Assembly: GCA_008477525.1 (NCBI GenBank)
Contig: SPDT01000002.1
Location: 2,790,001-2,854,000 of the forward strand
DNA from: Hypomyces perniciosus
Taxonomy: Eukaryota; Ascomycota; Sordariomycetes; Hypocreales; Hypocreaceae
Direction of reading: 5' to 3'
DNA: 64,000 bases
Shown: piece by piece, positions 28,446 through 60,832 of the stretch
Numbering within the stretch: the first letter of the stretch is position 1
Layout: every line of letters starts with the position of its first letter
Made by a program: the position numbers and the translations under genes
The notes under the pieces: model-generated
The model's database searches: none
What the model was told of the DNA's origin: nothing
The model's input: only the letters and a program-made list of their open reading frames with translations

Positions 28446-29731
28446 ATGAAACATGGGGATATTAGCGATTGGCTATCCCAGGTTGATTCCGCAGCCTGTT
28501 TAAAGCCGACTGGTAACAATCACCAGCCTCTGTCGCCCGAATCGCACAAAAGACGCCAGATCATGGCAGACGACGACGACTCGCATCCGACGCCGAAGAG
28601 GCAGAGATTGCAGGGGAATTCTCTCGACATGGATGAAACCCCAAGAGCAAGCAGCAGCCTGAGGGGGCAGAGATATCACATCCAGGCGGCATCACCAACA
28701 ACCTCCCTGCCGTCCCGTTCGAACTCGCAATCAACGAAGTCCCAAGGCTCTGGCTATTTATCGACCTCGAAACGAATTGCCGCCCTGGAGTTGAGCTCTG
28801 AGGGTATCGAGACGCGGGCGCTATCCCTGGAGAATCCGAGCTTGCCACCCGCGCTGTCTCAACTGCTTGTGGAGCTCGAGGGGTGCATCAGTGGATTTGG
28901 CGTAATATCAAGCAATCGGAAATCGGAAATCAAGGAACAATGCGAGAAAGACCCAAGATTTCGCGTTTTCATGGACTTCATGTATTCTGCCTCCGCAGAT
29001 CGCGACAAACTCGGCCCAACACCGTCGCTGGACGAAGTCATACACCTGGTTGGAGAGGCTGCAGAATGCCAGACCACAATGCAGTCCGAGGCAGGTTGGA
29101 ATATAATGGTCCATCTTCCTCTCTTATACAAGGCCATTTACGGCCAACGAAGGCAGAATCAGATAGTCGGGTTCGCGCCTTGCACGACTGCAAAGATCAT
29201 TAAAGAATACCTTGCTACAAGTTCACAGGCCAAGATGGTTGACTTCTGCATTTGTATCATGCCAGAAGTGGAAGACATTGCTGCCAATGCTATCACCAGA
29301 CTCCGTCAAGTGCTGCCTTACAATGTCATAAACCACACCGATTTTCTCCCCGTCCGCAATCGGCCTATCGCTATCAGCATCGAGACCAAGAAAAGAGGCG
29401 GAGCGCACCTGGTAACAGCGGAGTTACAGTTAGGCACATGGCACGCCGCACAGTGGAGATTTCTTGAGGATCTCGTTACCCGGTCTGGTGGCTCGTTCGA
29501 CGGATTGCCCTTTCTGCCAGCCGTTGTCGTGCAAGGACATGATTGGAGCTTCGCGGCTACGACAAGGGAGGGACAAAAACCGTATTATGGCTAGAGAAGG
29601 GCTTTGGATCGACGACTAGCTCTTTGGGGGTGTACAAGACGGTATGGGGCCTACAGCGTTTGGCTCAGTGGGCCAGGGAAGTATATTGGCCATGGGTTAG
29701 GGAGAATGCTTTGGAAATCCCAGAGGGATGA
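28446..29731 (+). pseudogene. PD-(D/E)XK nuclease-like fungal protein, frameshifted
   Basis: A 382-codon frame starts MKHGDISDWLSQVD and carries the organisation of the fungal PDDEXK-like family. A Ser/Arg-rich low-complexity N-terminus (PTPKRQRLQG) is followed by a helical middle, then NHTDFLPVRNRPIAISIETK, in which the ETK fits the ExK catalytic motif, and ELQLGTWHAAQWRFLEDL. It stops at 29594 just after ATTREG. The family's remaining C-terminal block (TKTVLWLEKGFGS, GVYKTVWGLQRLAQWAREVY) continues in another frame from about 29563 to the stop at 29731. A one-base loss near the GGGAGGGAC run explains this. Either the gene is broken or the assembly has an error. These genes are often accessory and multi-copy in fungi; the role is unknown. 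Confidence 0.6.
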
Positions 29732-30229: not shown

Positions 30230-32470
30230 CTAACTCGACAGAGTAATGTTTCTCATCTGCCCCCTGAAGCCCTCTCCAATCTTCTGAATCGGCGCCGCGA
30301 TTGCCATCGGCCCCTGTTGCATCTCATATCCCCAGATGCCCATCAAAATAGTGACCTCCTGACGCTGCGTCCCACGGCATTTGCTTCCAACCGATATGAA
30401 TGTCTGCGGTCCGATTCCCTCAACCGTGACATCGCTCCATCTGTTCTGTGGCAGGGTCAAGTTCACGGGATAGGCAATATTACCAGTCACCAGCATGAGT
30501 TTCGGCGACGTGCCATTGCCATTGAGAAGACTGCTGTGTGGACCGGAGACGAGCACACCGCCAGAGGATTCGGGTCTGACAGAGAATGAGAGCTTATAGT
30601 CGCGTCCCTTGCTCGTCAGAGGAGTCTTGAGGTATGCGCTCCGCCCATCAAGATGGAGAGCTCCGTCGCTGACCCATGCGCCGTTCTCAAGATGGCCATC
30701 ATAACGGTTGCCGGATTTGTCAGGGACAAGATATCTTGAGGAGAATTGCTTGTCAAACTGATAGGAGACAATCGTCGGGCCCTTGGACGGGATGCGCAAG
30801 TCAAGGTTCTGACCCGGGATCGCGGGCTGAAGCGTGGCAAAGAGGTTTGCGTAGTCTTGCTCCTTCAGCGAGCCTCCCCATTGCTTGTCCGCAAGAGCCG
30901 GCAGGCCGTTGCGAACCATGTAATAGGCCTCGTGGGTGGTGCTGGCATTAGGGCCCCAATCATTCCACATGACAGCCAAGTGTCCGAGAATATTGGGACT
31001 AGAACGAGGCGGGTTGTTGGTTGCGTTAGAGTGATCTAGGATATTTGGAGCAAAAGCACTGCCGTCTGGCGCTCCGTGGAAGACACGCTGGATATCCAGT
31101 TCCTTGGGGTAGGAATTGTCATATGCGTACTTGACGTCTAGATAAAAGAAATCATCGCTGTTGAGGACAGAGTAGCCGTTGTTGATGAAGTCGAGTGGAT
31201 TAGCCTGACCCTGCTGCCAATGCTGAATCGTCACATCCTTGTCGACATTCACAGTGTTAGGTTTCAAAGCCGGAGGGAACGTTCCCCAAATGCGTATGTC
31301 TTTTCCAGAAATCTCCTTGATGTAGGAGCGCATACAGCTAACAAAAAGACTGTATTGGTTGATGAAGTGTTTGTCGTACTCGTCTGCCCCGATGTGGACG
31401 ATTTTGGAGTGGAAGCTGTTTATCACAGCCTTCCAGTATGTCTTGACAGTCGGGAGCGTCTGTGGGTGGCTCAAGTTGAGCATGCTAAAGTCAGAAAGAG
31501 CAATTTCTGGCTTCCACATGGTCGTGGCCATGGAGTGTCCTGGAGACTCGAGCTCAGGCAGGATGGTTACGCCGCGGCGAGCGCATTTTCGCTGCAGATT
31601 GTCTAGGACTGATGGGCTGTATGTTTCATTGACCGGACGCGGCAGACCGGCTATGGCTGGATCATCAGAAGCCACTCGAAAGGCAGAGTACAGCTGCTTG
31701 GCAAGGTCGAGGGAAGACAGCCTGTTTTGGTCCCATACATGATCACTCAAATGTAAATGGAAGACGTTTTGCTTAAAGAATGACAGGTATGAACACATCT
31801 CTGCGAGGAAGTCCGCTGGGTAGTAATGACGTGCTACGTCTAGCTGGATAAAGGCCAGTTAATTCCACCTGGCAGAGGCCATCAATCGACATAATCACTC
31901 ACCATCATGCCTCGTTGTGACCAGCCAGGAGCATCAACACCCGCTCCAAGCTTCATCTTTCTGTTATTGAGCACAGCCTGTTGGAGGATGGTTCGAGTTC
32001 CCCACCACGCTCCCAGAGGACTGGCGCCGCTGAGAGTAATTCCCTTGGAAGTGACGGAGAGGTGGTAGCCCTCCGATGTCTTTTTGCCCGCTGCGTTCAA
32101 GAACTGAGACTTATCGCCATCTAGAGTCAGAAACACGGCATGGTCAACGGCCTTTGGCCCAGGAATCAGAACCGTCCGGATTCCAATACCAGCCAAGTCA
32201 TCACGGAAAGTTTCTGCGAATTCCCACAGCGTAGGCGGGATAGTGGTGAGGCCATCTTGATCTCGGACAGACGAAACCCTAGCATCAACAACAATCGCAC
32301 GGAGGCTTGAGAGGTCATATGCACCATCCGAACTGACGTTGAAGGGCACTGTTGGTATTCCCAATAATTGGGAGCGTCCTATTGAACGAGTTAGCAACTG
32401 TCTTCGGCCGGGCATGATACATAGACTGACCTAGGGACACCAATCCTAGAAACACAGACAGGAACTGCAT
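30230..32470 (-). CDS. Secreted beta-N-acetylhexosaminidase (GH20) with LamG-like C-terminus
   Basis: This enzyme removes terminal N-acetylhexosamine, e.g. from chitin oligomers or glycans, outside the cell. Three exons (32470-32431, 32378-31903, 31843-30230) join in frame to 709 aa. Exon 1 supplies a signal peptide, MQFLSVFLGLVSLG. Residues ~20-165 form the GH20 N-terminal alpha/beta domain (EGYHLSVTSKGITLSGASPLGAWWGTRTI). The barrel begins RGMML-DVARHYYPADFL and contains FHLHLSDH and the catalytic Asp-Glu in HIGADEYDKHF near 326-327. From about 520 to the end is a concanavalin/LamG-like domain (YDGHLENGAWVSDGALHLDG, YKLSFSVRPES). Common GH20 enzymes have HIGGDE; here it is GADE. This is a subgroup different from the usual fungal NagA type. 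Confidence 0.9.
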
Positions 32471-34933: not shown

Positions 34934-35404
34934 TTATGCGCAAAGGGTCAAAGTGACATCCTTATCCGCACCGCAGTTCTTGACCTGGCTTCCAGCAGGC
35001 GGAACACCGTTTGCCCAAACAATCTGTGGGCAGGCCGTGTTGGCGCTCGCCACAACAACCTTGTGGCCGGCGAATGCATCGCCAAAGACATCGCTGAGGT
35101 CATACCAGATGGTATCTCCCTGCAGGTTGTACGCGTAGATGGTCTGGGGCTTGCCAGTGTAGAGACCATCGGGCTCTCTGGTGACCTTGAAGGCACGGCC
35201 ACCTGTCTGGGGGTCACGAGAGAAACCCTCGCCGTAGAAGCCGCCATTGGGGGTGAGCGTGTAGGGGCCTGAGATGCTACTGCCGACGGACCAGGCAGTC
35301 ACAGGAAAGGTGCACTTGTTGACAACGCGGGCCCTGCCAATAGCGGCAGCGAGGTCGACGAGGGTGGCGCCGACGGCGAAGATGGTGGCCTTGTTGAGCA
35401 TCAT
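34934..35404 (-). CDS. Bys1-like (thaumatin-like fold) secreted protein
   Basis: This is a single-exon gene of 156 aa from ATG 35404 (MMLNKATIFAVGATLVDLAAA), which gives a proper signal peptide. An in-frame ATG 17 codons upstream would bury it and was not used. The mature part fits the Bys1 domain: ARVVNKCTFPVTAWSVGSS near the start, FSRDPQTGGRAFKVTREPDGLY, IYAYNLQGDTIWYDLSDVFGD and a Cys-ended tail, TLTLCA. Cysteines are at the NKCTF, NTACPQ, KNCGAD and LCA positions. The founding member is the Blastomyces yeast-phase protein; molecular function is unknown, and family members are abundant secreted proteins. It is followed upstream by a short tandem repeat in the leader. Confidence 0.85.
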   Translation of the reverse strand: MMLNKATIFAVGATLVDLAAAIGRARVVNKCTFPVTAWSVGSSISGPYTLTPNGGFYGEGFSRDPQTGGRAFKVTREPDGLYTGKPQTIYAYNLQGDTIWYDLSDVFGDAFAGHKVVVASANTACPQIVWANGVPPAGSQVKNCGADKDVTLTLCA

Positions 35405-35436
35405 TGTGGCGATGTGGTTTGGGTGTTGTTTTGGGG

Positions 35437-35475
35437 TGTTTGTAAGTGTTTGCAAGTGTTTGCAAGTGTTTGTAT
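35437..35475. repeat. Tandem GTGTTTGCAA repeat, ~10-bp unit
   Basis: Nearly four copies of a 10-bp unit (GTGTTTGTAA, GTGTTTGCAA twice, GTGTTTGTAT) lie 30-70 bases upstream of the Bys1-like start. They fall in what should be its 5' UTR or core promoter. Confidence 0.75.
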
Positions 35476-36910
35476 TGGTGTATGACTGAGTTGTCCGTGT
35501 TGGTGATGATAGTCCACTTGGAACCCATCATGACCGAGAACGTCGAGTCTTTTATACCCAGACACTTGCCCACCTCCACAGCATCAAGTCCGCATAGAGA
35601 AGAAGGTTGTCGTTAGGCATACTACTCGACATCAGCCTTCGGGGGAAAGATCTCGGGTTGCTTACCGTATCGGAGGCGAACTGAGATGCAGCGGAACGTC
35701 AACCATTCCCATGTTGGGCAATGCCATCCAGAATACGAGACACATATTTCCCAAGGCAAATATTGTGATCATGATGAGCTGAAGCGAAAGGCAAATACGA
35801 GTTGGTTGGGTGCCATCCTCGGTGGGTAGCGAGTCTCGGCCGATATCTTTTGTTCGAGACTCGGCTGTCAAAGCCTAACATGATGTATGTGGTGATGGTT
35901 GTCAAGCCCTGACGCACGCCTTTTTGGTGATCGACACAGCCATGGATGTGCCAAGCATCGTATTGATTAAATGCGGGGAAATGTCCTGGTGGGATGGATG
36001 GACCCGTGTCTTTGGAGATGGGAGAGAAGCTGAACCGTAGCTCTTTTGTCTCCTTGTCTGACGCAGCATTTTGCCCCAAAAATAGCATCTTGGGGAGCCG
36101 GATCGGGTGGTTCGAGATCTAGATCGACTCGTTTCGGCCTGGCTTAGAACATCTAGGTACTAAGTAACGGCGTGACGTATTCTGCAATTATGTATGTGTT
36201 GTCATGCATGTTCATCGAGTAATATATTCTCGGTCAGTATTCCGGAGGAGCCCGCTCGCTTAGACGCAATATTACGGAATATCAGGTAAGGTAGTATCAT
36301 GAAGGGGCTGAAGGACCCCAAGGTGGTGAGAATATTGGCATCCTGCAGTATGATTGTGGTAGCACAAAAACACCGTTCAGGCCTCGGCCGCTGCACTTTT
36401 GGAGCATCTTCTTCACCGAGAACTGCCTCATGACCTGACAATCATCCGAGCCTGACGCGTTGACTTCCTCAGCCGCAGAAGTGACGTTGCATAATATTGA
36501 AGTTCGTGCAGATTCCAAGGCAGGGAGCCATCAGGAACAAATGGTCGAGACCTATTTCGTATTGGGAATCGGGATGCGAGAAGAGCGTTCTCATGGCCAT
36601 GTCCACGACTGCTGTCACATATTAGTTTACTTGCTCACTTTGATGCCTGCACTTGGGCCGATTTGATCAGTCATAGATAGGACCATTACATTCTCTATCT
36701 AATAATAAAACGTAGAAAGAAAGAAATGCCGAGAGGCCTCAATATTATTAGTACATCTTATGAGACAATACTCCGTAGATACCCTGTACCCAAAAAGAAA
36801 AGAAAAGAAAAGAAAGAAAGAAATTGCTCATGCGCTGGTTTGATCCCACAAATGAAAACCCGTGATTAGTACTCCTTCGTAGTAGTAGCAGTAATAGCAT
36901 CAATCAATAC
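35476..36910. other. Intergenic before the PKS 3' end, no gene seen
   Basis: 1.4 kb with no supported gene. It contains an AAAAG/AAAG simple repeat at 36792-36823 and a CTCCGTAG element near 36772. Confidence 0.5.
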
Positions 36911-39900
36911 TCATTTCTCCTCCGACCAAACGCCCTCAATCCTCGACTTCCGCAACACCAATGCTGCCAAATCACTCAATCCTCCACTCGTCAGCAACTC
37001 GAGCACCTGCAAGTGAGCCTGCAGCTCCTTGCCGATCCAATTGCGCAGCTCAATCGCGTTGAGCGAATCCAACCCAAAGGCTGTGATAGACGTCGTGGCC
37101 TGCTGCGCCTCCATGACTTCTTGCGGCAGCATCAAGATGGCCCCGAGCTTTTCTCGCAGGCCAATAACGACTATGTTCTGAGCTTCCTCAGGGGTGGCCA
37201 CACGTCGGAGTTTCTGCCCGATGGTCAAGTTCTCTGATCCTGATGAAGCGTTGGCGTCTGCTGATTTGGCCAGCAGAGCGTTGCGCAGATGAGAGAACTT
37301 GGCATCCGAGGCATAGTATGGCAGCGAGGACGCGTTGTCGAAGCCCAATCCTGTGATGCACTGGTTTTGACAGAAGTTGGTGATCTTACCTGTCATGGCG
37401 GATTCGACGAGCGCCAACACCTCTGCTTCGCCAACAGTGTTATCAGACAAGTTCCTCATGACCTGTGACTTCTTTTCTGTGTTCTCTGCCAGATAACCAA
37501 CATCATCGACAGCCGCGAGATCAAGCGATGATGCCGCCAGGCCCTTCCGATGACGGTAGAGGGTGAAGGCATCGAGGAACGTGTTGGCTGCAGAGTAATG
37601 CGCTTGGCCTCTGTTACCAACAATGCCAGCGACGGAAGATAGCACGATGAAGAAGTCCAGAGGCGTATCGAGGAGAGCGTTGTGGAAGTTCCATGCTCCG
37701 GATATCTTGCTCCGGACAACTACCTCGTAATCGTCGAACGTCATCTTCTCAAACAGCACATCCTATAAGAGAGTTAGCGTACGCAATCAAATCGCTGAGC
37801 TTGATGAGAAGACTTACTCTGAGCACCATGGCGGCGTGGATGACACCTTTGATGGGAGGCAATACATCTTGTAGCTTCCCTACGAGATGCTTTACCTGGG
37901 CGCCATCCGCTACGTCGCATGCCATGACATATATGGAGGCGCCGAGCCTTCGACTTTCTTCGGCCAGAGTGTTCAGCTCATTAGTGAACTTGCCGCCACG
38001 AGAAAGCAGCACGATATGATGAGCTCCGCGCTGGACCATTCTCTTCGCCATAGAGCGACCGAGACCACCAGTACCGCCGATGATCACGTACGTGGCGTCT
38101 TCTTGGAGAACATTGTTACACGCTGTGGGATGCGTGGCCTAGAGGAGGTTAGTCAGTGGTTAAATTCCACGATCAATGACTTGCATACCTTGACTTGCTG
38201 GTCGTCCATATGATTCACAACGAGCTTGCCTGTGGTCTTGCCGCTCTGCAACTTGCGCAGCGAGGCCTCAACCTCGGAGATGCCAACAATTGTAATAGGT
38301 CCAATGGGATTAATCGTCCTCTTAGATATCAGCCCCATAACGGACGTCAAAACCCGTTGCATGATCCTCGGTCGCTCTGCTGCCACCAGCGTCAAGTCGA
38401 CCGAGCTGAACGTACAGTTGTACTCGAACTTGGCCATCTCCAGTCGTGTGTTGGACACAATATCCCTCTTGCCGAGCTCAACAAAGCGTCCAAACGGCGC
38501 GAGGCAGTCCCATGTCTCTCTGAGAAGATCTCCCGCGAGAGAGTTGATCACAACGTCGACGCCACGACCGCCAGTGGCTTCTCTCACGGCTGGTCCGAAA
38601 GACGTGTCGCGACTGTAGAAGATTCGGCTCTCTGGGATATTGTACGTATCCATCAGCAGCAGCTTCTTCTCAGCACTGCCTACTGTTGCGTAGATTTCGG
38701 CGCCGACCATCTGCGCAAGCTGGATAGCTGCTTGACCAACACCGCCAGAGGCAGCGTGAATGAGGATCTTCTCTCCGCGCTCCATTCTCGCAAGGTCCAT
38801 GAGACCGTAATACGCCGTGCAGTATACGACGGGAATCGAAGCCGCAACCTCGAAGCTCATGTTGTGGGGGATGACAGCAGCACTGGTGGCAGGGCAGCGA
38901 GTATAAGTGCCATACGCTCCTAGAGACATGGCGCAAACCCGATCACCAACCCTGATATTAGTGACACGGGAGCCCACACGGGCAATAGTACCACTGCATT
39001 CGACTCCGAGGTAGGGGCTGGCAACTTGTCCCATGGCGATGACAACATCCTTGAAGTTCATGCCTGTGCAAGCAACCTTGATCTCGACATCATCCGGTGA
39101 CAGAGGCAGCTCGGGCTCGTCCTTCCAGTATAATGAATCAAGGGCACCGTAGGTTCCAACAGCAATCTTCAGACGACGACGTGGTTGATCAAAATGCTGC
39201 AAGTAAGGTGGTGTTGATGTCTCAGTCTCACGGAAAACCGTGAGGTTCATATCCTCCTGCTCAACAACACGAGGAACCATCAACTTGCCATCCTCCTCAG
39301 CGAATTCATAGTCCACTGGAGAGTCATCTTCCGGGGTTGCAATGGAAGCCTTGACAGCACGCAGAATGAGCTCAGCTCGATCTCGGACGTCAAGCTGAGA
39401 GTTGGGATCCAAGTCCAAAGTGGCAGCAACCTTGCCCGCCTCGGACCGAACGGTTCGCAAAAGTCCTTGGGCGATATTGTTCTCTGGCTTCTCAGCGAAG
39501 CGATACGCGCCGGCACTGACCCAAAGCATGGACAAGCAGTCAAGAAGCAGCCTTTGCACGCGTGAAAATGTCTCAGCAGACATGTTGTCAAGCAGCGGTG
39601 CATCCAACTCAGCCAAGCAGATACAGCGAGTAGAAGACAAGGGCTCGTGAGTGGCGAAGGGAGCAATAGATGGCCTGGAACCGGTGCGCAGGTCGATGAG
39701 ATCGGCGAGCGCAGAGATTAGAGGATCCGATTCGTCCTTGTCTGAGATGAGGACAATGTTGGCATCGCTCAGATCACCGCCAAAGGAGGCTTCATGGTGA
39801 CAGTTGGTTCCATTATGACCGTTGGTTCCATTATAGCCGTTGGTTCCATTATGGCCGTTGGTGTCGTTCTTCAGATCTTTGCCATTCGTTTTATGCCCAT

Positions 39901-42900
39901 TCGTGTGGCCATTAGTGCCGTTCGTTCCAACATGGCCGTTCGTATTGCCGTTGGAGTGACCATTGGTGTGTCCATTGGTGTGACTATTAGAATGACCATT
40001 GGCTTGAGCATGACCGTTGGCTTTGCCATTTGTTTTGCCATTGCCATTGGTGTATCCATTGGTATGGCCATTAGAATGACCATTGGTTTGGGCATGGCCA
40101 TTGGCTTCGCCAATTCTGCCATTGGTGTGTCCATTGCCATTTGTTTTGCCATTGGTGTGGCCATTGCCATTGACGATGGCGCCGTTTCCATTGGCATGGT
40201 TACCATTGTGGCCGTTGGACACAGCACCGTTCTTCTCCTTGGGCTCCATTTTGCCGTCAAGAGGCTCCCACTCGACCTTGTAGCACAAAGATCGTGGGCT
40301 TACACCTTCACCGGTGTCACCATTAACAGGAGTCATCCTGAAACCAACGACTCTAATCACAGGCTCAGCCTGAGAGGCATGCCATGCGTCGATAAAGAAA
40401 TCGACTGGTCCCGGGCTGGTGAAATCCGGGCGCCCATGTCCCACAGCTTGAACTTGTTCGCCAGGTAGGTTGGGCAAGGAGGTGCTGATGTCAACCTCCT
40501 TAATGGCGGAGGGCATGAAGAGTGATGGCATCTCGCCACTTCCAGCACCCAGAATGGGGAATGTGAGCTGCCAGAGGAGATCTATGAACGCAGCAGGTGC
40601 AATTGATGGTGCCTCGAAAGACGACGGCATGCTTGATGCAGTATCGGGAATAGTGAGATTGGCGGTAGAATAATGTTCCTTCACCTTGAGGCCGGCATTA
40701 CCTTGAATCTTGAAGGCTGACCTGTAGCCCGCTCCACGGCTTTCAAGCTCTGAGTAGAAGGCATCCACCGAGAGACGGTTGCCTCCAACATCTACAATCT
40801 GCTTTCGGCGAGCTGTTGCGCCTTGCAACTGAGCCTGACTGACTGGGTTGGTAGCAGTTGTCTTCTTGATACCAACAAGACCACGGCAATGCTCCAGCCA
40901 GCCCCTACTCGACGTCCACGAGGAGATACGGAACTCATCCCACTCATTCGAGTACGATCTCATGCCCTCAGCATATGGCTTGAGGGAGAAAACGATCTCA
41001 TATGGAGCACCATCATCAAGGATCAGCGCCTTGGATACCTGAATCTCTCGAAGGCGGAAACCAGCAATCTGTTCTGATTTCACGCCTCGGAGCTGAGCTC
41101 GTTGAGATGCTGCCTCGACAGCCATGCATATGTATCCCGCAAGTGGGAATGTGGCCAGCGATTGCATTCGGTGGTCCTTCAGCCACGGAACGTCATCCGT
41201 GGAGAGAATATTTCGCCACGTTGGCTCAACATCGCTGTACGAATCCTCTAGGACACCAAGCAAATCATGGCGAACAAACGGCATGAGACGGTGTTGCTTG
41301 CATGCCCTCGGCTCAAACCAGTACTTGTGATCTGACCAAGGGTATGGGTTAAAATCCGTGACTAGAGATGGCTTCCGAAGACTCTCATCGGGGCGATTAA
41401 TGGCACTGAAGTTGACAGGCTGGCCCTTGGTGAACAAGTTACCAGCGAGCTTCAGCGTCGTCTCTGTGGCGCTCTGGTTTCGAACGATAGATGGGAAGTA
41501 TTTGACCTCCGAAGCAGCCTGTTGACTGATGCCCTTGAGAATCTGTTTGATGGGACCCTCGAGAGCAGAATGAGGACCAATCTCAACAACGATATCTGGT
41601 CTGGCACCGTTGTACAGCTCCTGGAGAGCCGAAGAGAAGAGAACAGGGCGAGTCAAATTATCTACCCAGTATGACGGACCAAGCGAAGCCGTGGAGCCGA
41701 GTTTTTTTCCCAGAAGAGAAGAGTAGAATTCCACGTCACTTGTAGACGTTGAAGTCGTATACTTGATGGCTGCCTTGTAGTCATCCGCAACCAGCTGCAT
41801 GTGGGATGAGTGATACGCCATGTTGACGCGTAGCTTGCGGTTAAAGACGCTTCGGCTTTCCAGCTCAGCAGCAAGCAGGTCAACAGCTTCCTCATCACCC
41901 GACGCCGTGATGGAATTGGGCGAATTCTCACAGGCCACCGTGATGTTCTCCAGGTCAAGAGACTTGATGATATTCTTTACTTCGGCGGCTCCAGCACCGA
42001 CAGCAAGCATGGCTCCACGAAGTTTCGGGTACTTCACCTTGATCTGGGAGGCCACTTTACCACGGAAGTAAGCCACAGCCATTGCATCCTGGAGACTGAT
42101 AGCACCAGTAGCAAACGCCGCCCCAATTTCACCACTTGAGTGGCCAATGACTGCAGAAGGTTTGACTCCCCAAGATGCTAACAGGGCCGTGAGGCCAAGC
42201 TGGATCGCTGTGCAGATCGGTTGGGAAATGTGCGCCTCGTTGACGATAGACTCCTCCTTACTTTTGGCGAGTTCCTCCAACAAAGAGAACTCTGCACCAA
42301 GTTCCTCGAGGTAATGACTGCAAGTCCTGACAGTGTTGGCAAAAATAGGATGACTATCCATTAGCTCCTTGCCCATCTCTGCCCATTGCGCCCCCTGGCC
42401 AGTATATACAAAGGCAAGCTTCGGCACTCGAGTTGCCCTTCCAGGGATGGCACCCACGCCGTTCAAGGCGCTCGCGAGTTCGTCGCACGATGATGCCGTG
42501 ATGGCGATACGCCAGGGAAGATGTGATCTTCTCTCGCCGAGCGTATAGGCCATGTCCTGAATTAGACACTTTTGGAAGACCTCTGGGTGCTGCTCAACGT
42601 AGATGCCTAGCTGTGCAGCCGCCCGCTTGACTGCGCCCTCGTCGTGAGCAGAAACAACGAAGAGTTTTGATGTACTGTTCTGGTCCCCCTGTTGCATGTC
42701 GGCGAGACACAAGGGGTGACGTTCGAGGACAGCATGTGCATTTGATCCGCCAAAGCCAAAGCTATTAATGCTGATATATCGCTTGTTCTTGGGCCATGGC
42801 CGGACGTTGACGGGGACTTTGATGTTCCACTCATTCAAGGGGATCGCCTCGTTCGCTTTCTCGAAGTTGACGTTGGGCAGGATGAATCCCTTCTCCAGCA

Positions 42901-44160
42901 TCAATGTCGCCTTGATGACGGAGATGATGCCGCTGGCGTTCTCCAAGTGGCCAACGTTGGACTTCACAGAGCCCATATACAAGGGCGCTCGCTTTGTGCG
43001 ACCTTTACCGAAGACGCGGTAGATGGAACTGGCCTCAATCGGATCTCCTGCTCTGGTCCCTGTGCCGTGGGCCTCGACGAAACCTGTGTCTTCTGGAGAG
43101 ATGTTTGCGCGAGCATAAACGTCGCGCATCAGTCTCTCCTGTGCTTCACCGCTGGGGTTTGTGAGGCCAGCAGTCTTGCCGTCCTGGTTGATTCCAGTGT
43201 TGACAATTATGGAGCGAATCTTGTCGTTATCTTTGATGGCCTGGTCCAAGGGCTTGAGGATAATGCAGCCCACACCTTCACCCCGGGCAAAGCCAGACTT
43301 GGCGCGGTGATCAAAGGCGAATGTCTTGCCATGCTCATTAAATAGGCTTCATCTGGTCAGCTTATTTACTACAAAATGTCAGGAGGCAAACTCACCCTAG
43401 AAGGGACATCGAGATCATGTCGTGAGGCTGCAGATGCAAACTGCATCCTGCTACAATAGCTGAGTCTGAGTCGCCAGAGCGAATGCTTTGAACCGCGCAA
43501 TGCAGCGCATACAAACCAGATGAGCATGCAGTGTCCACTGAAAAGGAGGGACCATGCAAATCAAAGAAATATGAGATGCGACCGGCCTGGATAGACTGAT
43601 GGTTGCCTGTGGCATCATACATGGGAGTCTGGCTCGTGTCTCTTAATGTTCCCAGGCGGTAGTCAGATGTTGTGCCGCCCACGAAGACGCCCATGTTGCT
43701 TCCTGCTATGTATTCCTTTGGGAATCCAGCGTTTTCGAGTGCTTCGTATGTGCACTCTAATAACAGTCTTTGCTGGGGATCTATCAAATTGTTAGTTCAC
43801 CACTAACACCATCATGAAAACAGGAGGACAAGAAATACCCATTGCGATAGCCTCCTGCTTGGTAAGCTGAAAGAACGGAGCGTCAAACCGTGACAAGTCA
43901 TGGTTCATAAAGTACCCTCCTTTGCTGTTAAAGCAGCCCTTCTTCTGCGGATTTGGGTGGTAGAAGGCCTTTGCTGAGAATCTGTCCTCGGGTACAGATC
44001 GCCATCCGTTTCGTGAACGAGACAGCATAGTCCAGAAGTCATCGATTGTCGAGACATCTCCTGACAGACGGCATGACATTCCCACAACGGCAATGGGCAT
44101 TGGGCCCTCGCGCCTCGTCATGTCATCGGGTGACACACTGATATTATTAATGTTCATCAT
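36911..44160 (-). CDS. Highly reducing iterative type I polyketide synthase (KS-AT-DH-ER-KR-ACP)
   Basis: This enzyme builds a reduced polyketide from malonyl units. Five exons (44160-43839, 43780-43396, 43346-38189, 38138-37818, 37762-36911) keep frame and give 2345 aa. KS has DTACSSG, EAHGTGT and KSNVGH. AT has YTGQGAQW (~547) and GHSSGE (~635). DH has His in WLKDHRMQSLATFPLAGY (~959). ER (~1630 on) has HAASGGVGQAAIQLAQ. KR starts YVIIGGTGGLG (~1973) with YSAANTF. ACP has FGLDSLNAIELRN (~2294). No methyltransferase or thioesterase is seen. A 150-residue Asn/Gly/His/Thr tract (1272-1422) lies where a C-methyltransferase would be, followed by a pseudo-KR region. The second intron is 49 nt and ends AAG. 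It is divergent from an FSH hydrolase, which probably releases the product. The product is unknown. Confidence 0.94.
39790..40240. repeat. Coding minisatellite (Asn-Gly-rich tract of the PKS)
   Basis: On the coding (minus) strand, degenerate 12-18-bp units read mostly NGHTNG, NGNG, NGHS and NGKT for about 150 residues. On the plus strand the same DNA is also open, reading Val/Gly/Ile/Met repeats, which is a by-product. Unit variants are interspersed rather than in blocks, suggesting slippage plus drift. Confidence 0.9.
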
Positions 44161-46192
44161 GGTGGAAGATGGTGAGATTATTCGACCACGAACACTCTGA
44201 CACTTCCTCTGGTATCATCCAGAAGTGTATGAGTTAGAACAAACTGATTATGGGAGACACAATTCCTTTATTATAAGGTTCGGCTGTCCTAAATGGTTGG
44301 CCTAGGCAACAGCATACAATCCTCTCCTCTCCAATATGCAGGCCAATATGCAGGCAGATATTAGTCGATCCTTTTTCCAATGTGAATCTATGGGCGGAAG
44401 TGATGAGACATCAATTACGAGCACATAACTCCGCCCCCACGATGAATCCACCGGATCCATCGACACGATTGTGCCGACATAATACGGTTTCCCCGGTTGC
44501 AGTCAGCTCTCTTCATTTTCCTCATTGACAATTGAGAGAGAATAAGATATTGCTATAGCACTCTCATTAGCGCAGGCCTAGAGCTGGTTCCGTTACCTTT
44601 GAAGAGGTCCCTCCGTCACACCTTCGTTCGGCACAGACGACTTTGCTTTTGGCGATCCACAAGGCCGTGATGCCTACCTGAAATTTTCATAAAAGACAGG
44701 CCATACTCAAGATTAGTAGGGATCTGCAGCATAAAATTGAGAAGTGGCTGTCTACCCTTGTAAGCAATGTATCGAGCAAGCAGGGGACTTGCAGCATCGC
44801 CAAAATGCCTGCAAGAGGAATGGACAGACGAGTTGTTTATTTTCTACGGAGTATTTATCTATAATATTGCTTGCTATAACGCCTATTAACAACTGCTGCT
44901 ATACGGAGTACCTATTTATTAAATAATAATAATATAATAATAAAAAGATAAAAAAAAATAAAAAATGAGATAATAATTTGTAGTAATAATTATAGCTGCT
45001 AATATTTATTTATTGCAAGGCAATATTACTTGAAGCTTTTTAATTTAATAGTATTTAAATTTTTATTAATAGTATTTTTCAGGCTCTGTTATTAATGTTG
45101 CCTCCTCACTGATTATCAGCAGCAGCAGCAGAATAGTAGTACCTGGTAGGTAAGGATTAGTGACGATTTAGGTGGCTTTCGAGTGCAGACGGTACATGGT
45201 TTATGCCCGCTAGTTCTGGGAGTAGTACCTGAAATAATTTAAGGCGTTAGGGATCAGAGCCCAACAAGTGTCGTATGCGGATGTACTCGTACATGCAGGT
45301 GCAACTGTTCGAGAACTGCTCGTTTGTTGTGTTAGTCGGTTGGCAAAGGAAATCCCATAGCATTCATTGTAAGATGAGACATTCCAGGTATGTCAAGTCC
45401 GGATACGCAATAACGCTGGCCTCCTAGTACGAGTACAGTCATAGTGAATTGCTTGGTTGAGAGTTCAATGCATGTCACAGACACATGGCATGCCAACCAA
45501 CATGCATGGATCCTAAGAATGTTGCCCAATATTAATACTACGAGTAGCTCATCACAACACAGGATGAGTAACAATAAAAAAGGTAGAGACATAAGCGACT
45601 GATGGCCAAGACACTTAGTAATACAAAAATGTTCTTCGTACGGAGTACTCGTACTCCATATGCATTCCACTGAGAGCTCGGGGTTGCCAAAAGCGTGGTG
45701 GTTGGCTCGGCCACCGCAAATGACAAACAAAACTACTGGCATGGAGTACTCGGTGAGATTCAATTATTTCTTTGCTTTGAGATTCATGGCTCCCTCTCCT
45801 AGCATGTCTAATCTCATTGGGTCGGATCAGTGCCTGAGGGGAAATAGAATGGTCCGATTCGCGAGTTGTTACGAAGTGTATTGATACCATTGTCTTTTCC
45901 AATCAGCAGCCGTCACTCACCGAAATGATGATGTTGAATGGCCGCCATGTACTTCGTATGTAGTACAGTCTGCTTTCGTTCATCTCCTGTTGCAGGCCCA
46001 CCCTGGTGTATCGCTTTCAAACCATGGAGCCCAAAACGGATTATTTCGCCAAGTTTATTTCATCTTGGTATATATAAGAAGAGATCCAACCTTCCACAGG
46101 ACAAATATTCATCACACTACGCTCGCTCTATCGTATCTTCACTAACTTCGTTCACCGTCAGTATCTACACGCCGTACTCACCACTAGCCATC
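44161..46192. promoter_or_regulatory. Divergent intergenic region of the PKS cluster
   Basis: Two kb between the PKS start and the hydrolase start, with no supported gene. A strongly AT-rich block at about 44905-45080 is made of AAT/AATA runs. TACGGAGTA-type elements occur at 44845, 44902 and 45639. A direct repeat CCAATATGCAGG occurs twice near 44333-44355. TATATAA at 46072 lies about 120 bases upstream of the hydrolase ATG and is a plausible TATA box. Confidence 0.55.
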
Positions 46193-47141
46193 ATGAAGGT
46201 CCTTTGTCTTCACGGCGCCTATGGTAGCGCCTCAGTAAGCTAAATCACTTCGTTTCATGCCCATGATATCGCCTCCAAGGTGGCAACTGACCGATTCCAG
46301 AACTTCCAGGTTCAGCTGGCGCCCTTCATCGGTGCCATTGAGAAGCCTGATGTCGAGTTCAAATGGATCGACGGTTTTGCCAATGCCACGCCGCCACCTA
46401 GCTTTGAGAATTACTTTGGCGCTGGGCCTCTCTACCGGTTTATGGACTTTGACGGCATGGGAGACTTGGACAAAATGATCTCGAAGATCAGAGATCTCCC
46501 ACAGACCAATTCCCCTGAGGATACGATGCGCCTATTAGTGTCCGACGCTGAGGCGTTTGCTGCGCCAGCAGTTAGGTCCTCGATGTCTCAGCTTTTTGAC
46601 ATTATAGATGCAGACCCAGAGATTGATGTAAGGCCTAATGAGAAACAACTTGCAATCTTCCAACATCCAGACTGATTGGTTGAGCAGGGTATTCTGGGCT
46701 ACTCGGAGGGAGCCACAACGGCAGCCACACTCATCCTCGAGGAGCGTCGTCGATTTGAGGAAGAAGGCAGACCTCGCCGTATCAAGGTGAGCTAGCAGCC
46801 TCAATTCCCCTACTGTCTGCAGATAAATGGTGTCGAGTTTAACATTTGGCACACAGTACGCTACCTTCTTTGCCGGTTGGCCGCCTGTCCGCCTCGATGA
46901 TGGGAAAGTCAAGGTTATCCTCTCTGATGAATGCGAGGACGTAATCGACATCCCGACATGCCACATTGTCGGCTGTAAAGACCCTTACGTACATGGCGCC
47001 ATGGCGCTGTACAGTATGTGCGACGAGGACACAGCAGTTCTGTTTGACCACGGCAAAGGCCACACAGTGCCGCGCGATGAGACGACGATTAGCGAGTTGG
47101 CCAAAGCCATTCAGAGTACGTGGATCAAGGCGGAGTCATAG
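46193..47141 (+). CDS. FSH-family serine hydrolase (putative PKS-releasing thioesterase)
   Basis: This is an alpha/beta hydrolase of the FSH1 family, whose LovG-type members cut polyketides off HR-PKSs. Four exons (46193-46234, 46301-46627, 46688-46786, 46857-47141) join in frame to 250 aa. The start MKVLCLHGAYGSAS-NFQVQLAPF has the LCLHG oxyanion loop of the family. The nucleophile is Ser in GYSEGA (GxSxG). A likely acid lies in the HIVGCKDPYV strand, and the His is in DHGKGHTVPR, so the triad looks complete. FFAGWPP is a family block. It lies head-to-head with a PKS that has no releasing domain and just upstream of a glycosyltransferase. A release function is inferred from this context. Confidence 0.87.
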
Positions 47142-48058
47142 TCTTATTCTGGTTCGATATATTACTCTATGTATGTATGGGGCTTGAGGTTTCACTTTCG
47201 TCACCAGGACCTTGCGTTTAGATCTTAGTAATGAGCGTTGCAGTACTCGTAGTAATATCTAGAAGAGGGAACAAATACAAGTCAAAAAGCACCATCTCAC
47301 ATGTCCATTTCCACAGAAGTACTATGTACAAAAAATGCTCCTAGGGTAGATCACGACGTTGTAATTGGCCGTTCGGAGGCTACTGAGACAATGATTGCGG
47401 AAGAATTGTGGCCGCGAACGGCGAGAACTCGAAAACAGAACCTAAGATATGTGTGTGTCGTCATACCAATTGTAAAGGGGGTGGAAACAAAGACATGGCC
47501 CCCAATACATCTCTTCTCAGTCTTGTCACACAATGGATATGGATTGTACCTTTATTCTCCACGCTCTTCCTCTGTGGACTTCGTGTGAAACCATTGCCCT
47601 TCCTTTGGAACAGTTTCCAGCCACTCCAGGGAAACTCCCGATAGCACAATCTCAACTGAGACATGCATGATCTAATCCTTTGCCCTTGATATCAGCCGTT
47701 CGACTTCGTACATTTGCGCAAATGCTGTAATAACTCTCATTATGACCCTTCGGGTTTGCATTTATCACCTACGAAGTATCTGTATGGAGTATATGTAGTT
47801 GAGTGCCCTTCCCGAAATACGTCACATAGTGTAGGACTGTACTCCGTATTTGACCGAGATCACTCACATTCCGCATACGCCACATGATTCAAATATCCGG
47901 TTGGCATCCTTGCCTTCACACAGAAACGGCACAGGTGTAAGACAAAGCGGTTGATCTCACTGGTAGTATTAGATCCCAATCACCCCCCTCTTTGTCATGG
48001 CTCTTGGCGCCAAGTTGTTCATGCATCGTGATAGCCCTCGAGCTGTCATCATCTCACC
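47142..48058. promoter_or_regulatory. Spacer between hydrolase and glycosyltransferase genes
   Basis: 917 bases with no supported gene. Contains TACTCCGTA (47840-47848) and a CTACGAAGTA near 47770, about 200-290 bases ahead of the glycosyltransferase start. No TATA box is obvious. Confidence 0.45.
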
Positions 48059-49729
48059 ATGGCGACTGATGAAAAGTCCCCAGGGTCGAGGAGAATCCTG
48101 TTCTTGACAAATGTCGATCTTGGCGAAGCGAATACCTTCCTTGCAACTTCATATGCGTTATTTCAGGCTGATCCTGATGTCGAAATCCACTTAGCAACCT
48201 TTGACGGTTTAGAGGAGTCCATCATCTCCGTCTCCCAAGATGCGCGTCTCACGGTGCCGCAAGCCAAGCCCATTATCTTCCATCAAATCGAGGGATTATC
48301 CATGGGAAAGGCTTTGAAGGAGAACTTTAACCAAATCGACTCCCGCGATTACTACTATCCTGACTCCTACTTGGCGTCTCCAAGTTTTTCCAATACCCCT
48401 CGTGCCATCCAAGACACAATGAAAATCTTTGTTCCTTACACCGGTCCGCAGCTGGTAAAGATTGTCATGTCTATAGAAGGGATCATCAAGGAAGTCGATG
48501 CCGATCTCGTCGTGGTTGATAGCCTCATGACTGCAGGGCTCACGGCTTGCTATTACCTAGGAGTCAAGTTTACCTGCCTCAGTCCGAACGCCATCAAGGA
48601 GTTTGCGAGACCAAGTCAGCCTGGGGCCGTTGGTCTGTGGAAATTCCCCGTGTAAGTACATCAGCCTCGCTGCAGTCAGCCAAGATGACCCAAAGGTGGA
48701 GAGGTTACTCATAAGGTATAGGCTCTTTTCCGGCTTTCCATACCCTGTTCCGTGGCACTTGATACCGCTCAACATTTACTACTTTGTTCATTTGGTCAGA
48801 GCATTTACAAATGACAACCATAAGAACGAGGTAACGAAGTATCTGGCATCACAAGCTGGTAGAACCTTGAGGACACCGATTGATCTACTCCACAGTCGAC
48901 CAGCAGATCTCAAGATCCTCGTCAGTACTTTGCCAGAACTCGACTTTCCTCTCATCCTCCCATCTCATGTCTTTCCCTGTGGTCCCATTATCCGCCATGC
49001 CCCACCAATCTCAGAATCGGATCCGGAGCTGGGGGCGTGGCTGGCAAAAGCACCAACAGTCTATGTTAACCTGGGATCTCTCTTTCGCATTGCAGAGAAT
49101 CAAGCAATAGAGCTTGCGCATGCGCTTAGGATTGTATTGGACACATTCAAAAAGCGATCTGGCAATAATGCTCAGCTGCAGGTTTTCTGGAAGTTAAAGA
49201 GGAGAGGCGACTACAAAATCCTGGAACCTGGATCTAAGATTCATGAGATTTTTGAGGGCGAGCTGAAAGCAGATATTGTAAGAATAGTTGACTGGTTCCA
49301 GACTGAACCGATTGCCATCCTTCAGACTGGACATGTAGTGTGCTCAGTACACCACGGGGGTGCAAACTCATACAATGAAGCTGTCCTGTAGGTTTCCTCA
49401 CTCAGCTCAACGTTATTTGTCCAAGCGTCTAACATAGTCACAGCTCTGGCATCCCACATGTCGTGCTTCCGCAGTGGACAGACTGTTACGAATACGTCCA
49501 GCGCGTTGAGTTCCTAGGTATCGGTCGATGGGGAAGCAGGACCACAAAGCCACAATGGACAGCCGAAGAACTCTCACGAGAACTGCTAGACGTGCTATTG
49601 GGGAAACAGTCGGACGCTATTAAACAAAAGGCAAAACATCTGGCCGAAATCTGCCAAAGGAATGGTAATGGCGCTGACAACGCCGCCAAGATTATTTTAG
49701 GAGAGTGCAGCCAGACTGGAGATCCGTGA
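48059..49729 (+). CDS. Family-1 UDP-glycosyltransferase
   Basis: This enzyme transfers a sugar from a UDP-sugar to a small acceptor. Three exons (48059-48651, 48722-49387, 49444-49729) join in frame to 514 aa. The N-terminal half (RRILFLTNVDLGEANTFLAT, ADLVVVDSLMTAGLTACYYLG) is the acceptor domain. The C-terminal half has PTVYVNLGSLFR and the GT1 signature VHHGGANSYNEAVL-SGIPHVVLPQWTDCYEYVQRVE, whose His and Gly residues bind the diphosphate. There is no signal peptide and no C-terminal membrane anchor, so it differs from ER glucuronosyltransferases and from sterol glucosyltransferases with PH/GRAM domains. It shares direction and a short spacer with the hydrolase. I infer that it glycosylates the PKS product. 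Confidence 0.88.
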
Positions 49730-50299: not shown

Positions 50300-53200
50300 T
50301 CAACTCGCAGCTGAGTATCGAGCCAATGCATCTGCCTCCATTTTCAGTGCGTTGATCTTTTTGAGAAGCTTCTCCCGTTCCATCAACTTGCATGGATCCA
50401 GATCCTTAACTGACAATGTCAAATCGAGATCTGTTCTGATCCGCCCAAGGACTTCACCAAATTCTTTCTCTAATTGTTGGCTTGTCTCTTTAAGGACTTT
50501 CTCCATAAGGCTGGACATCTTCCTGCAAATTGTCGGAAACAAAGTTGGATCCGCGAGCCGTTCTCGCACCAGGTTCTTCTGGACAGCTGTTGAACCAACC
50601 CCTATTGTAATGTAAGTTGATGTGATACTTGTATGAGTTCATTTTAACTATTCCACATGCAAGACTTACCACGGATAGCAGCAGCGGATCGGTATGTTGA
50701 GATCATTTCGTTGAAAATGTATGAAATGGAGTTGGACTCCAATGCTTTCAGACGGCTGTTCCTACACCAAAAAGTCAGTTACAGGACCATAAATGCACAA
50801 ACTCCACGGGTCATATACCTTATCTCGACTGCAAACATATCTCTCATGCGACTCGATAGGTGCTGTGAATCTTTGAGCCTGAACTCGATTGCACTGCTGA
50901 GTAGGTTGTGGATTGTAGGAGGAGCATTGTCTAAACAGAAAGTCAATCAGGGATCTTATTTTCCCTCCATTCTGTCTTAGAGAAACACCCTTACCAATCA
51001 GGATTTTCTTCAGAGCCAAAAGACACGCCTGCATCGACTCAGATAACTGATGAAAGACGGGATGAACCTGGCTTTCCACAACCTCCCATGGACCCGCCAA
51101 TTGCATGCGCATCTTGTTGATGATCTTGGCATTCCAATCCTCACGTGGGCGTTTTCTGGTTCGATGATTGCCGTTATTTCTACACCACGCTGTAAACTGG
51201 CCTATGAAGTCACGGTTAGTTCCAGCAAGAGTGAGATGGTAAGTCGGAGGTGTGGGTGTGTACTGTAGTGCCACTGAGAATGGTTAGCAATCGTAAGATA
51301 GACCCTAATCGCAAATATTAACTCACTAGAAGCCATCCTTGGTACTCCTCCTCTGCTGCTTTAACCCAGCTGGGATGTTTTTGCTCTTCACCAGACTGTC
51401 AGTTGTGTGGATTTCCCATTGACTGCGATACATACCGGCAACTTGGATGACATTTTTCTCAAAGAAAGCTTTGAAGCTTTCCTCGAAGACTCGTACAATA
51501 CCATCAAACTGATTGGTCTATAGAGCATTGTCAGCAAACTAAGCACGGCATCGAGTACAAGGGGAAAATACCGCTCTTGACAGTTTATTCTGTATATTCT
51601 GAACGGCTTCAGCGGGAATGCTGCAGCTGGTCCACATCTCGAAAGAATTGAAGGTACCGGCCAATGAAGTCTCGAGAAAGTGCCTGGCTTCTTGGAGTTG
51701 CTTGTCGGCTGTAGATGTTTGACAGAAGCCTCGAAGTCGCGGGATCCCGCTAGCGGAAACAAGAGCAACGTTGCCTTGTTGGCCATATTTTTCGTACCAC
51801 TTGTTCGACACACAAAAGACATCTAGCTTTCGCTCCGGGACTTTCGCGGCGTAAGCCTGCTGGATCCCTGTTTTCACATACTCGTTTCGTGCTTCGATTA
51901 GGAGGAGTTTGCATCTACAACGCTTGTTGGTTAGATGATGTTGACTATAGACGGTCCAATTAAAGGGAATATCCATACCTTTGCTTCAGTTCCTTGACTT
52001 TCGTGGAATCTTGACATAATTTAGCACGCCTGAGTTCTATATCAAGCTTGTCCATAGCGGACGGGCTGATTCGTTTGTCGGGCCCACAGAACTCTTTTCG
52101 AGCCCTGGTTTCGTTTATTTCCTGCAAATGTCAGCGCATTCTCGGCGTTTCTCAATGTCTCTAAGGCCCCTACATCAACTTTTGTGCAGACAACGGCAAT
52201 TTTCAAGGACTTGGCAGCAGACTCATCCCATTCCAATGGAACGTGATGCCGGATGACAGAGAAGAGCGCCGACTTGAGAGACTGGTCGGTAACGGCCCGA
52301 GAAATGTTGGCCACAATAAGGATATTGCTGCACCTGACCAGGTAATCTTGTGTTGCTCGAACCCTGGCCAGATTCGTGTCCTGCAAACCTTGATAGTGCG
52401 TGAGCTTCCTATGCGAATAGAGCAAACCGGGTAGGTGATGCTTACCTGGTAAGTCTGCGAGAACTACTCCGGTCTTCAAGACGGGCGAGTCGAGGTAAAT
52501 GCTTTCGTCTGCGTGTTAGATGTTGTGCAAATTCACTTGGAAAGGCAAGTTACTTGCCGAATTATTTTGGTAAATGGCCAATAACGGTCGCTCATGAAGA
52601 CATCGGTCTTCTCGCAACACTCGTCAGCGTCATCTGCCGTGGTTTTCCAAACCCCACCGACGCTGCCTTTAGGCCACTTGAGATCACGAGACCATTCAAA
52701 GAGCTGATTTTTCAGTCTCTCGAATGTACCTTCAGACATGTCTTGGAGAGCTTCTTCATTGAAGCCCTCCTGGTGGCCAAATGCAGCCTCGAGGGCCGAC
52801 CATGCCTGTTCAGATTCTCTTACGCACTTGTCGTAATCCTCGGCCAATGTCTCATCCGACTCTACCCCAGGTAGGTAGAACTGTCGGTAGCTCCAGAGCA
52901 GCTCCGATATGAGCTCTTTAATATCCGAAGCCGATAGATACTCTACCTCGATCGTGATAGCTGGTGTGTCAGAGTCGGACTTCTGCCGGTATTCGGTTAC
53001 CACAGAAGTACATGCTGAGCCAATGTCCCCCTAAAAGAAATATGAGAGTGAGAAGTCGTGATGGTTTCACAATGTACTAACCGTCTTTGCAATCCCAGGG
53101 AATTGAAGAAGGGAGTTGATGAGAGAACTCTTGCCTATCCACGATTAGTCTGAGTCTCACTCTCTTCACATTCGTCGACTTGCCTTGTCCTGAGTCACCC

Positions 53201-53675
53201 AGAACGGCGAAAGTTTTCGTGTCTGAAGGCTTGAAAGAGCAAAGCTTATTGACGTCGCCATGGAGCTTAGTTAACAAGGAACTGTCCTTCAGAAGCGATT
53301 CTGTCTCCTCCATAGCCTCCACCGTCTTCTTGGCAACGTGCATTCCAGCCTTAAGTAAACCTTGAAACTCATCGGTAAAGAAGCGATGTGGCGGTGCCAG
53401 CTCACTGTGGGCATCGTAAACAATAGGCACGTTCCCTACTTTCGACCCATTTCCCGCTTCGTGTTCGTTATCCGCTTTCAGCAGAGTGGATCGGTGGCTA
53501 TGCGAGGCGCCGGCGTCGCTTCAAGGCAAGTTTTGATGTCGGTATCGGGCTCCGCTTTGGTGCTAGGTAGAACGCAATCGCTGGTTGATCCTCGTGCCTG
53601 TGAGTTATCGCGAGACTTATCAGATCCTTGAGAAGTGGTATGAAGAACGACGGGGAGATTGGGTGAGTGAAACAT
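50300..53675 (-). CDS. Dynamin/SLIP-GC-like large GTPase, many exons, start uncertain
   Basis: This is a large GTPase of unknown role. G1 is built across an intron: LGDSGQG-KSSLINSLL. Later exons give G3 (GVVLADLPG-LQDTNLARVRA) and G4 (VVCTKVD-EINETRARKEF). A long helical region follows, ending ...EREKLLKKINALKMEADALARY at 50300. At least ten introns are needed. Two are GC-AG: 53183-53135 and 52557-52502, both with donor GCAAGT. The frame open at the P-loop exon runs up to a TGA at 53521-53523 without any ATG before residue AGMHVAKK. The best leader starts at ATG 53675 in another frame and would need a weak-donor intron or a frameshift. It is typical of fast-evolving accessory GTPases. It is adjacent to the PKS cluster but unlikely to be part of its chemistry. 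Confidence 0.72.
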
Positions 53676-60756: not shown

Positions 60757-60832
60757 ACCTCTTCGTCGTCTTCTTTATCGTCTTCATCTTCGTCTTCTTG
60801 TTCTCCTTTTTCCTCCTCCTCCTTCTCTGGTT
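60757..60832. repeat. Pyrimidine-rich TCGTCTTC/TCCTCC tract
   Basis: A ~75-base almost pure pyrimidine tract ends about 45 bases before the SWIRM-protein ATG. If translated from an upstream ATG it would code for a Ser run. Confidence 0.8.

What the first reader, a model, noticed from the sequence alone, without database searches (positions are those of the whole stretch)
36911..49729. Compact HR-PKS, hydrolase and glycosyltransferase cluster, possible undescribed glycosylated polyketide pathway
The sequence shows a complete HR-PKS without a releasing domain, head-to-head with an FSH hydrolase having an intact GYSEGA/His site, followed by a soluble GT1 enzyme in the same direction. FSH hydrolases (LovG type) are known to release HR-PKS chains. 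No P450, local transporter or cluster regulator lies between them. The inferred product is a reduced, non-methylated acyl chain released as an acid or lactone and then glycosylated. The minimal three-gene make-up is unusual among fungal PKS clusters.
Basis: partly seen in the sequence, partly recalled or inferred. Interest (0 to 1): 0.8.

Follow-up and report, generated by a model that had tools for sequence, protein, structure and literature searches.

The report
Orphan fungal glycosylated-polyketide gene trio
Three neighbouring genes in an unnamed fungus look like a small pathway that builds a fatty, unbranched chain, cuts it loose and probably attaches a sugar; related sets occur in other fungi, and no product for them turned up in the papers searched.

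Summary
At 36911-49729 lie an intact highly reducing PKS (2345 aa, KS-AT-DH-psiKR-ER-KR-ACP, no methyltransferase or releasing domain), a divergent FSH1 hydrolase (250 aa, triad intact) and a co-directional GT1 glycosyltransferase (516 aa). It is more than chance: three other fungi keep the order PKS-FSH-GT by locus tag, eight more keep GT beside FSH or PKS, and the genome holds no close second copy of FSH or GT. The kind is not new: the fusapyrone cluster joins HR-PKS, FSH1 and a glycosyltransferase, and a sibling PKS, Fulvia fulva Pks2, is placed in print with depudecin/botcinic-acid synthases. Most likely an unmethylated reduced chain is built, released by the FSH and glycosylated; product, sugar and order of steps are inferred.

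The parts
36911..44160 (-). HR-PKS gene, exons 43839-44160, 43396-43780, 38189-43346, 37818-38138, 36911-37762; 2345 aa, KS-AT-DH-psiKR-ER-KR-ACP, no cMT, no release domain
39767..40252 (-). Asn-Gly-His-Thr-rich linker of the PKS (aa 1268-1429; 34 NG dipeptides in 162 aa) at the place where HR-PKSs usually carry the C-methyltransferase; DNA coordinates worked out by hand from the exon model
44161..46192 (.). shared intergenic region between the divergent PKS and FSH genes; contains an AT-rich block (lowest 250 bp at 44831, GC 0.196) and three TACGGAGTA copies
46193..47141 (+). FSH1 serine hydrolase, exons 46193-46234, 46301-46627, 46688-46786, 46857-47141; 250 aa; Ser129, Asp198, His225; proposed trans-acting release enzyme
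48059..49729 (+). GT1 glycosyltransferase, exons 48059-48651, 48716-49387, 49444-49729; 516 aa; GT-B fold; Glu23 at the place of the usual catalytic His

Best explanation
A compact, conserved biosynthetic gene cluster. The HR-PKS iteratively builds a linear, reduced, non-C-methylated acyl chain that stays on its ACP (domains shown; product inferred). The divergent FSH1 hydrolase takes the chain off the ACP as acid or lactone (inferred from family, triad and place). The co-directional GT1 enzyme then transfers a sugar from a nucleotide sugar to a hydroxyl or carboxyl of the freed chain (inferred). The order release then glycosylation is suggested by the absence of a release domain and by the FSH-GT pairing in relatives, and is not shown.
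For: Intact spliced genes, domains and motifs. FSH triad: Asp and His in 120 of 120 aligned sequences, Ser in 117 of 120 (one listed hit of 180 aa, P0234, fell under the length filter); nucleophile at a strand-helix elbow in the model (pLDDT 89.9); first fold match yeast FSH1. GT: confident GT-B model (pLDDT 94.1), first Foldseek row a macrolide glycosyltransferase (2iya). Co-conservation: in the listed top 120 of each search, 9 contig lengths are shared by GT, FSH and PKS, 9 by GT and FSH only, 12 by GT and PKS only, 18 by FSH and PKS only; close locus tags in named fungi, with the order PKS-FSH-GT in 3 of 3 full sets. Distances of the three proteins correlate over 10 taxa (rho 0.81, 0.71, 0.63). 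In this genome 6 of 8 FSH1 places lie within 12 kb of a KS, while of 9 GT places examined only this one does.
Against: No expression or metabolite data. GT is not linked everywhere: in Tolypocladium capitatum PKS and FSH share a contig length and GT has another, and 90 of 120 listed GT hits share no contig length with listed FSH or PKS hits (lists cut at 120). In print the FSH FUS5 of the fusarin cluster is co-expressed but not essential (PMC10512364), so an FSH next to a PKS does not prove release. FSH beside a PKS is common in this genome, so that pair alone says little about glycosylation. The correlation has no species-tree control. Foldseek matches are of low identity (9-19%) and modest TM-score to the query (0.55 for 2iya, 0.59 for yeast FSH1).
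Confidence: 0.62

Rival explanations
1. Sugar offloading: the FSH enzyme does not hydrolyse but transfers the ACP-bound chain to a sugar or glycoside that the GT makes, so release and sugar attachment are one step and the product is a sugar ester.
For: Precedents in print: the alpha/beta hydrolase TreC releases an HR-PKS chain onto trehalose (PMC10682982); in luteodienoside a GT is proposed to make glucinol, which the cAT domain uses to offload the chain (PMC10901484). FSH and GT tags are directly adjacent in eight genomes (three full sets and five more) and fused in three Monosporascus models.
Against: TreC and LtbB are described as an ABH and a family-2-like GT, not as FSH1 and GT1. FSH and PKS are paired just as often (directly adjacent tags in eight genomes) and 18 contig lengths hold FSH and PKS without a listed GT, which fits a release role that needs no sugar.
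Confidence: 0.15
2. The chain ends in a pyrone and the GT is a C-glycosyltransferase, as proposed for fusapyrone; FSH is then accessory.
For: Fusapyrone cluster: PKS FPY1, proposed C-glycosyltransferase FPY2, FSH1 protein FPY3. The GT here lacks the usual catalytic His (none in 116 aligned).
Against: FPY1 has a methyltransferase domain and its cluster has a P450, a dehydrogenase and a transporter; no FPY sequence was compared here. Absence of the His is no proof of C-transfer.
Confidence: 0.1
3. FSH is an editing (type II) thioesterase or a passenger, and the GT serves detoxification or another pathway; the three genes are neighbours without forming one pathway.
For: FUS5 was not essential in fusarin synthesis (PMC10512364). 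GT is on another contig length in Tolypocladium capitatum.
Against: Neighbourhood retained across distant Ascomycota and no close paralogues.
Confidence: 0.13

Closest known systems
Fusapyrone (FPY) cluster of Fusarium mangiferae (PMC10512364; sections 20 and 25 and passages seen)
   Same: PKS, FSH1-domain protein and UDP-glycosyltransferase in one co-expressed cluster; glycosylated product
   Different: seven genes with P450, dehydrogenase and MFS transporter; PKS has a C-methyltransferase and the product is methylated; sequences not compared here
Fulvia (Cladosporium) fulvum Pks2 and the depudecin/botcinic-acid synthase clade (PMC3895014; passages seen)
   Same: Fulvia fulva PKS2 is a hit of the window PKS at 56% identity over the searched part (P0283); that paper places Pks2 in a clade with Dep5 and BCBO9
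   Different: the paper found no conserved cluster at the C. fulvum PKS2 locus; Dep5 and BCBO9 sequences were not compared here
Aspergillus terreus ATEG_07067
   Same: listed as HR-PKS KS-AT-DH-ER-KR-ACP without CMeT and without a product in a 2014 review (PMC4274970, one passage); 58% identity over the searched part (P0287)
   Different: its neighbours were not examined
Treconorin (tre) and luteodienoside (ltb) clusters
   Same: HR-PKS chains that end up joined to a sugar, with an alpha/beta hydrolase (tre) or a GT (ltb) in the cluster
   Different: offloading directly onto the sugar moiety; the tre assay needed SAM and the ltb PKS has MT and cAT domains; other accessory genes
LovG-type trans-acting hydrolases (lovastatin)
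   Same: alpha/beta hydrolase beside an HR-PKS without release domain (relation of LovG to FmFpy3 as told in PMC10512364)
   Different: no LovG sequence was compared; the PDB sequence search with the FSH gave 0 matches

Membership tests
Highly reducing iterative type I PKS | KS, AT, DH, ER, KR and ACP in one chain with active-site motifs | tested here: met
   (motif meanings recalled; DH motif departs from HxxxGxxxxP at the Gly)
Highly reducing iterative type I PKS | C-methyltransferase domain (common, not obligatory) | tested here: not met
   no methyltransferase family; none seen in the Pfam lists of the 120 listed hits (read by eye; some hits are partial); in this genome 21 of 27 DH places have a Methyltransf_12 match within 3 kb downstream, this is one of 6 without, of which one is a 127-aa fragment
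Depudecin/botcinic-acid PKS clade | groups with Dep5 and BCBO9 in a tree | not tested
   only indirect, through Fulvia fulva Pks2
FSH1 serine hydrolase family | PF03959 match with Ser-Asp-His triad | tested here: met
LovG-type trans-acting PKS release enzyme | releases the ACP-bound chain of the partner PKS | not testable with these tools
   needs enzyme assay or deletion; 6 of 8 FSH1 places of this genome lie within 12 kb of a KS
GT1 UDP-glycosyltransferase family | GT-B fold and C-terminal donor-binding motif | tested here: met
   in the HHGGANSYNE motif H411 113, G413 115, S416 114 and E419 103 of 116
GT1 UDP-glycosyltransferase family | catalytic His at the start of the first helix (recalled from plant UGTs and macrolide GTs) | tested here: not met
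   position 23 is Gln 70, Glu 44, Asp 1, gap 1 of 116 (window GT plus 115 of 120 listed hits; 5 outside 400-620 aa dropped); equivalence rests on the G-H/E-x-N motif and the helix start at residue 21, not on a superposition
Fusapyrone-type cluster | methylating PKS with C-glycosyltransferase, P450, dehydrogenase and transporter | tested here: not met
   no cMT; no P450 haem motif in the window and no transporter among the ORFs scanned next to the genes

The most novel reading that the evidence does not exclude
A widespread, undescribed fungal pathway family in which a methyltransferase-less HR-PKS, its domain replaced by a fast-evolving Asn-Gly-rich tether, works with an FSH enzyme and a histidine-less GT1 enzyme as one release-and-glycosylation unit, the FSH handing the chain directly to the GT or to a GT-made glycoside.
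Probability: 0.2. Interest if true: 0.65.

Novelty: new member of a known kind. Interest (0 to 1): 0.42.

Why it matters
A three-gene pathway kept across distant Ascomycota is easy to reconstitute and could yield a glycosylated reduced polyketide of a family for which my paper searches found no product. It would also test two open points: how chains leave HR-PKSs that lack a release domain when a glycosyltransferase sits beside the hydrolase, and how a GT1 family works without the usual catalytic histidine.

Tried and rejected
Idea that FSH or GT is a housekeeping gene with a better copy elsewhere: rejected. Idea that this is the Trichoderma 6-pentyl-pyrone cluster: not supported by what I saw; that cluster is described with phosphorylase, hydratase, desaturase and dehydrogenases and its Pks1 with a methyltransferase (PMC12010586, passages), and the words glycosyltransferase and hydrolase do not occur in its main text; sequences not compared. 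Liamocin polyol-lipid genes (PMC11905612, passages) considered as an analogue of a reduced chain joined to a polyol; no sequence compared. Idea that TACGGAGTA copies mark cluster regulation: rejected, the word is frequent genome-wide. Flanking GH20, Bys1, PDDEXK and DUF7605 genes were considered as cluster members and left out; whether they travel with the trio in relatives was not tested. PDB sequence search of FSH: no match; of GT: 28 distant matches, best 1.1e-6. NCBIfam: GT below all cut-offs, FSH none. Monosporascus fused FSH-GT models may be merged gene predictions; junctions read do not decide it.

Limits: contig-length matching is a stand-in for sharing a contig and uses only the listed 120 of 253 (GT), 120 of 255 (FSH) and 120 of 404 (PKS) hits; sharing a megabase contig is not adjacency, and strands in relatives are unknown. 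Coniochaeta pulveracea GT and FSH share a contig length but have distant tags (002153, 002270). Rows dropped by length before counts: 5 GT hits (P0002, P0011, P0012, P0107, P0119) and 1 FSH hit (P0234).

Papers: PMC10682982, first of three parts; PMC10512364, sections 20 and 25 and passages; PMC10901484, PMC3895014, PMC4274970, PMC11905612, PMC12010586, PMC12142736, passages only; all other papers in the search results, listings only. Ten of ten paper searches used.

Full report
What is there. The window is G000:C5:2790001-2854000 of an unnamed 44.0 Mb genome in 23 contigs. Splicing by hand at GT-AG introns of 49-70 bases gives three intact genes: a 2345-aa HR-PKS on the minus strand (36911-44160), a 250-aa FSH1 hydrolase (46193-47141, plus) and a 516-aa GT1 glycosyltransferase (48059-49729, plus). 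Pfam finds KS, AT, DH, psiKR, ER, KR and ACP and no methyltransferase or thioesterase in the PKS; active-site motifs are present (motif meanings recalled).

Surroundings. Beyond the PKS 3' end lie Bys1 (34934-35527), a GH20 hexosaminidase (30230-32430) and a PDDEXK nuclease-like ORF (28383-29594); beyond the GT lies a DUF7605 gene (Pfam match at 50762-51283; extent about 50300-53500 by eye) and later a SWIRM ORF (60391-62052). No Zn2Cys6 or P450 haem motif appears in six frames, so no local regulator or oxidase was seen; split motifs would be missed, and only 17 ORFs outside the trio were scanned with Pfam. ABC pieces lie at 10578-12978.

Is it more than neighbourhood? Locus tags show all three together, in the order PKS-FSH-GT, in Conoideocrella luteorostrata (QQS21_006894 GT, 006895 FSH, 006897 PKS), Fusarium nematophilum (ACJ41O_005914, 005913, 005912) and Aphanocladium album (PWT90_05865, 05864, 05863). 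GT-FSH tags are adjacent in Cylindrodendrum, Lepraria, Neonectria magnoliae, Cercophora and Arachnomyces; GT-PKS tags are two or three apart in Neonectria punicea, Zasmidium and Trichoderma gracile; FSH-PKS tags are adjacent in Monosporascus sp. mg162, T. viride, a Chaetothyriales strain, a second place in Conoideocrella, Fusarium solani and Aspergillus niger. Three Monosporascus models read FSH then GT in one chain, the order of the window; they may be merged predictions. Against: GT is on another contig length in Tolypocladium capitatum, and 90 of 120 listed GT hits share no contig length with the other two lists.

Within the genome. FSH has no close second copy (best other place by E-value 31% over 136 residues; highest identity 42% over 62) nor has GT (32-40% in pieces). 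Of 8 FSH1 places, 6 lie within 12 kb of one of 41 KS places, this one included (5 of the 7 others; about 1e-7 if placed at random, a rough figure). Of 9 GT places examined only this one lies near a KS (7 plus two; the PF06722 scan itself did not list this GT, so such counts are lower bounds). FSH beside a PKS is thus ordinary here, GT beside a PKS is not. Over 10 taxa (the window and the 9 contig lengths with all three) protein distances correlate (GT-PKS 0.81, GT-FSH 0.71, FSH-PKS 0.63; 0, 0 and 28 of 5000 permutations reach them), though shared ancestry alone could give this.

First, PKS residues 1268-1429, where a methyltransferase would usually sit, are an Asn-Gly-His-Thr-rich stretch (34 NG dipeptides in 162 aa). 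Over the window PKS and the 120 listed hits, the aligned stretch holds 880 NG dipeptides against 31.5 expected from whole-protein composition, 82 of 121 having three or more; a Fusarium solani/Neonectria group has Ser/Glu-rich stretches with none, and one protein has only 7 residues there. The codon pattern searched occurs four times in the genome, all in this linker (one match for the reversed control). In this genome 21 of 27 DH places have a methyltransferase match within 3 kb downstream; this is one of six without. I read the stretch as a flexible tether left after loss of the domain; that is inference. Second, the GT carries Glu23 where GT1 enzymes usually have a catalytic His (recalled); in 116 aligned sequences the column is Gln 70, Glu 44, Asp 1, gap 1. 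In the model the first helix begins at residue 21, as expected for that site, but no superposition was made.

How it most likely works. The PKS makes a reduced, non-methylated chain; the FSH releases it; the GT adds a sugar. Shown: genes, domains, motifs, predicted folds, co-conservation. Inferred: product, release, sugar, order. Rivals are direct offloading onto a sugar (precedents TreC, and LtbA/LtbB), C-glycosylation of a pyrone as proposed for fusapyrone, and an accessory FSH with an unrelated GT.

What is known. PKS plus FSH1 plus GT exists in the fusapyrone cluster. Fulvia fulva PKS2, 56% identical over the searched part, is placed with the depudecin and botcinic-acid synthases. ATEG_07067, 58% identical, is listed with the same domains and no product in a 2014 review. 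Ten paper searches of an open-licence library brought up no paper that I recognised as describing this trio; I looked into only some of the papers listed, and subscription papers are mostly not covered. I therefore file it as a new member of a known kind, of moderate interest.

Noticed in passing
window, 24 places (e.g. 44845, 44902, 45639, 47840, 54587); genome-wide: The near-palindromic word TACGGAGTA occurs 24 times in the window (0.15 expected), and TACGGAGTAY 5922 times in the genome against 130 for the reversed control. None of the 24 lies in the three modelled coding sequences; 54587 and 54594 overlap as a tandem heptamer.
   Followed up: partly
window 39767-40252: Asn-Gly-rich repeat stretch of the PKS in the place of the methyltransferase; 82 of 121 aligned family members have three or more NG dipeptides there, with differing units.
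   Followed up: yes
G000:C3:4655585, C8:2752374, C16:4269191: Three PKS places with a 3808-aa open frame and equal or nearly equal scores on three contigs, and a pair at C8:1131455 and C8:2892109 with equal scores: possible recent copies of large synthase genes.
   Followed up: no
window 44831-45080: Very AT-rich block (GC 0.196 over 250 bases) between the divergent PKS and FSH genes; could be a mutated repeat remnant.
   Followed up: no
G000:C4:6686612, C8:3113278, C8:3877508, C9:1317257, C5:1898648: Five further FSH1 places within 12 kb of a KS: FSH beside PKS is a general pattern in this genome.
   Followed up: partly
P0002, P0011, P0012 (Monosporascus): Gene models joining FSH and GT in one protein; real fusion or merged prediction.
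   Followed up: partly
GT alignment A1, His44 and His75 of the window GT: Two histidines are invariant in all 61 aligned GTs although the usual catalytic His is missing; whether either lies near the active site was not tested.
   Followed up: no
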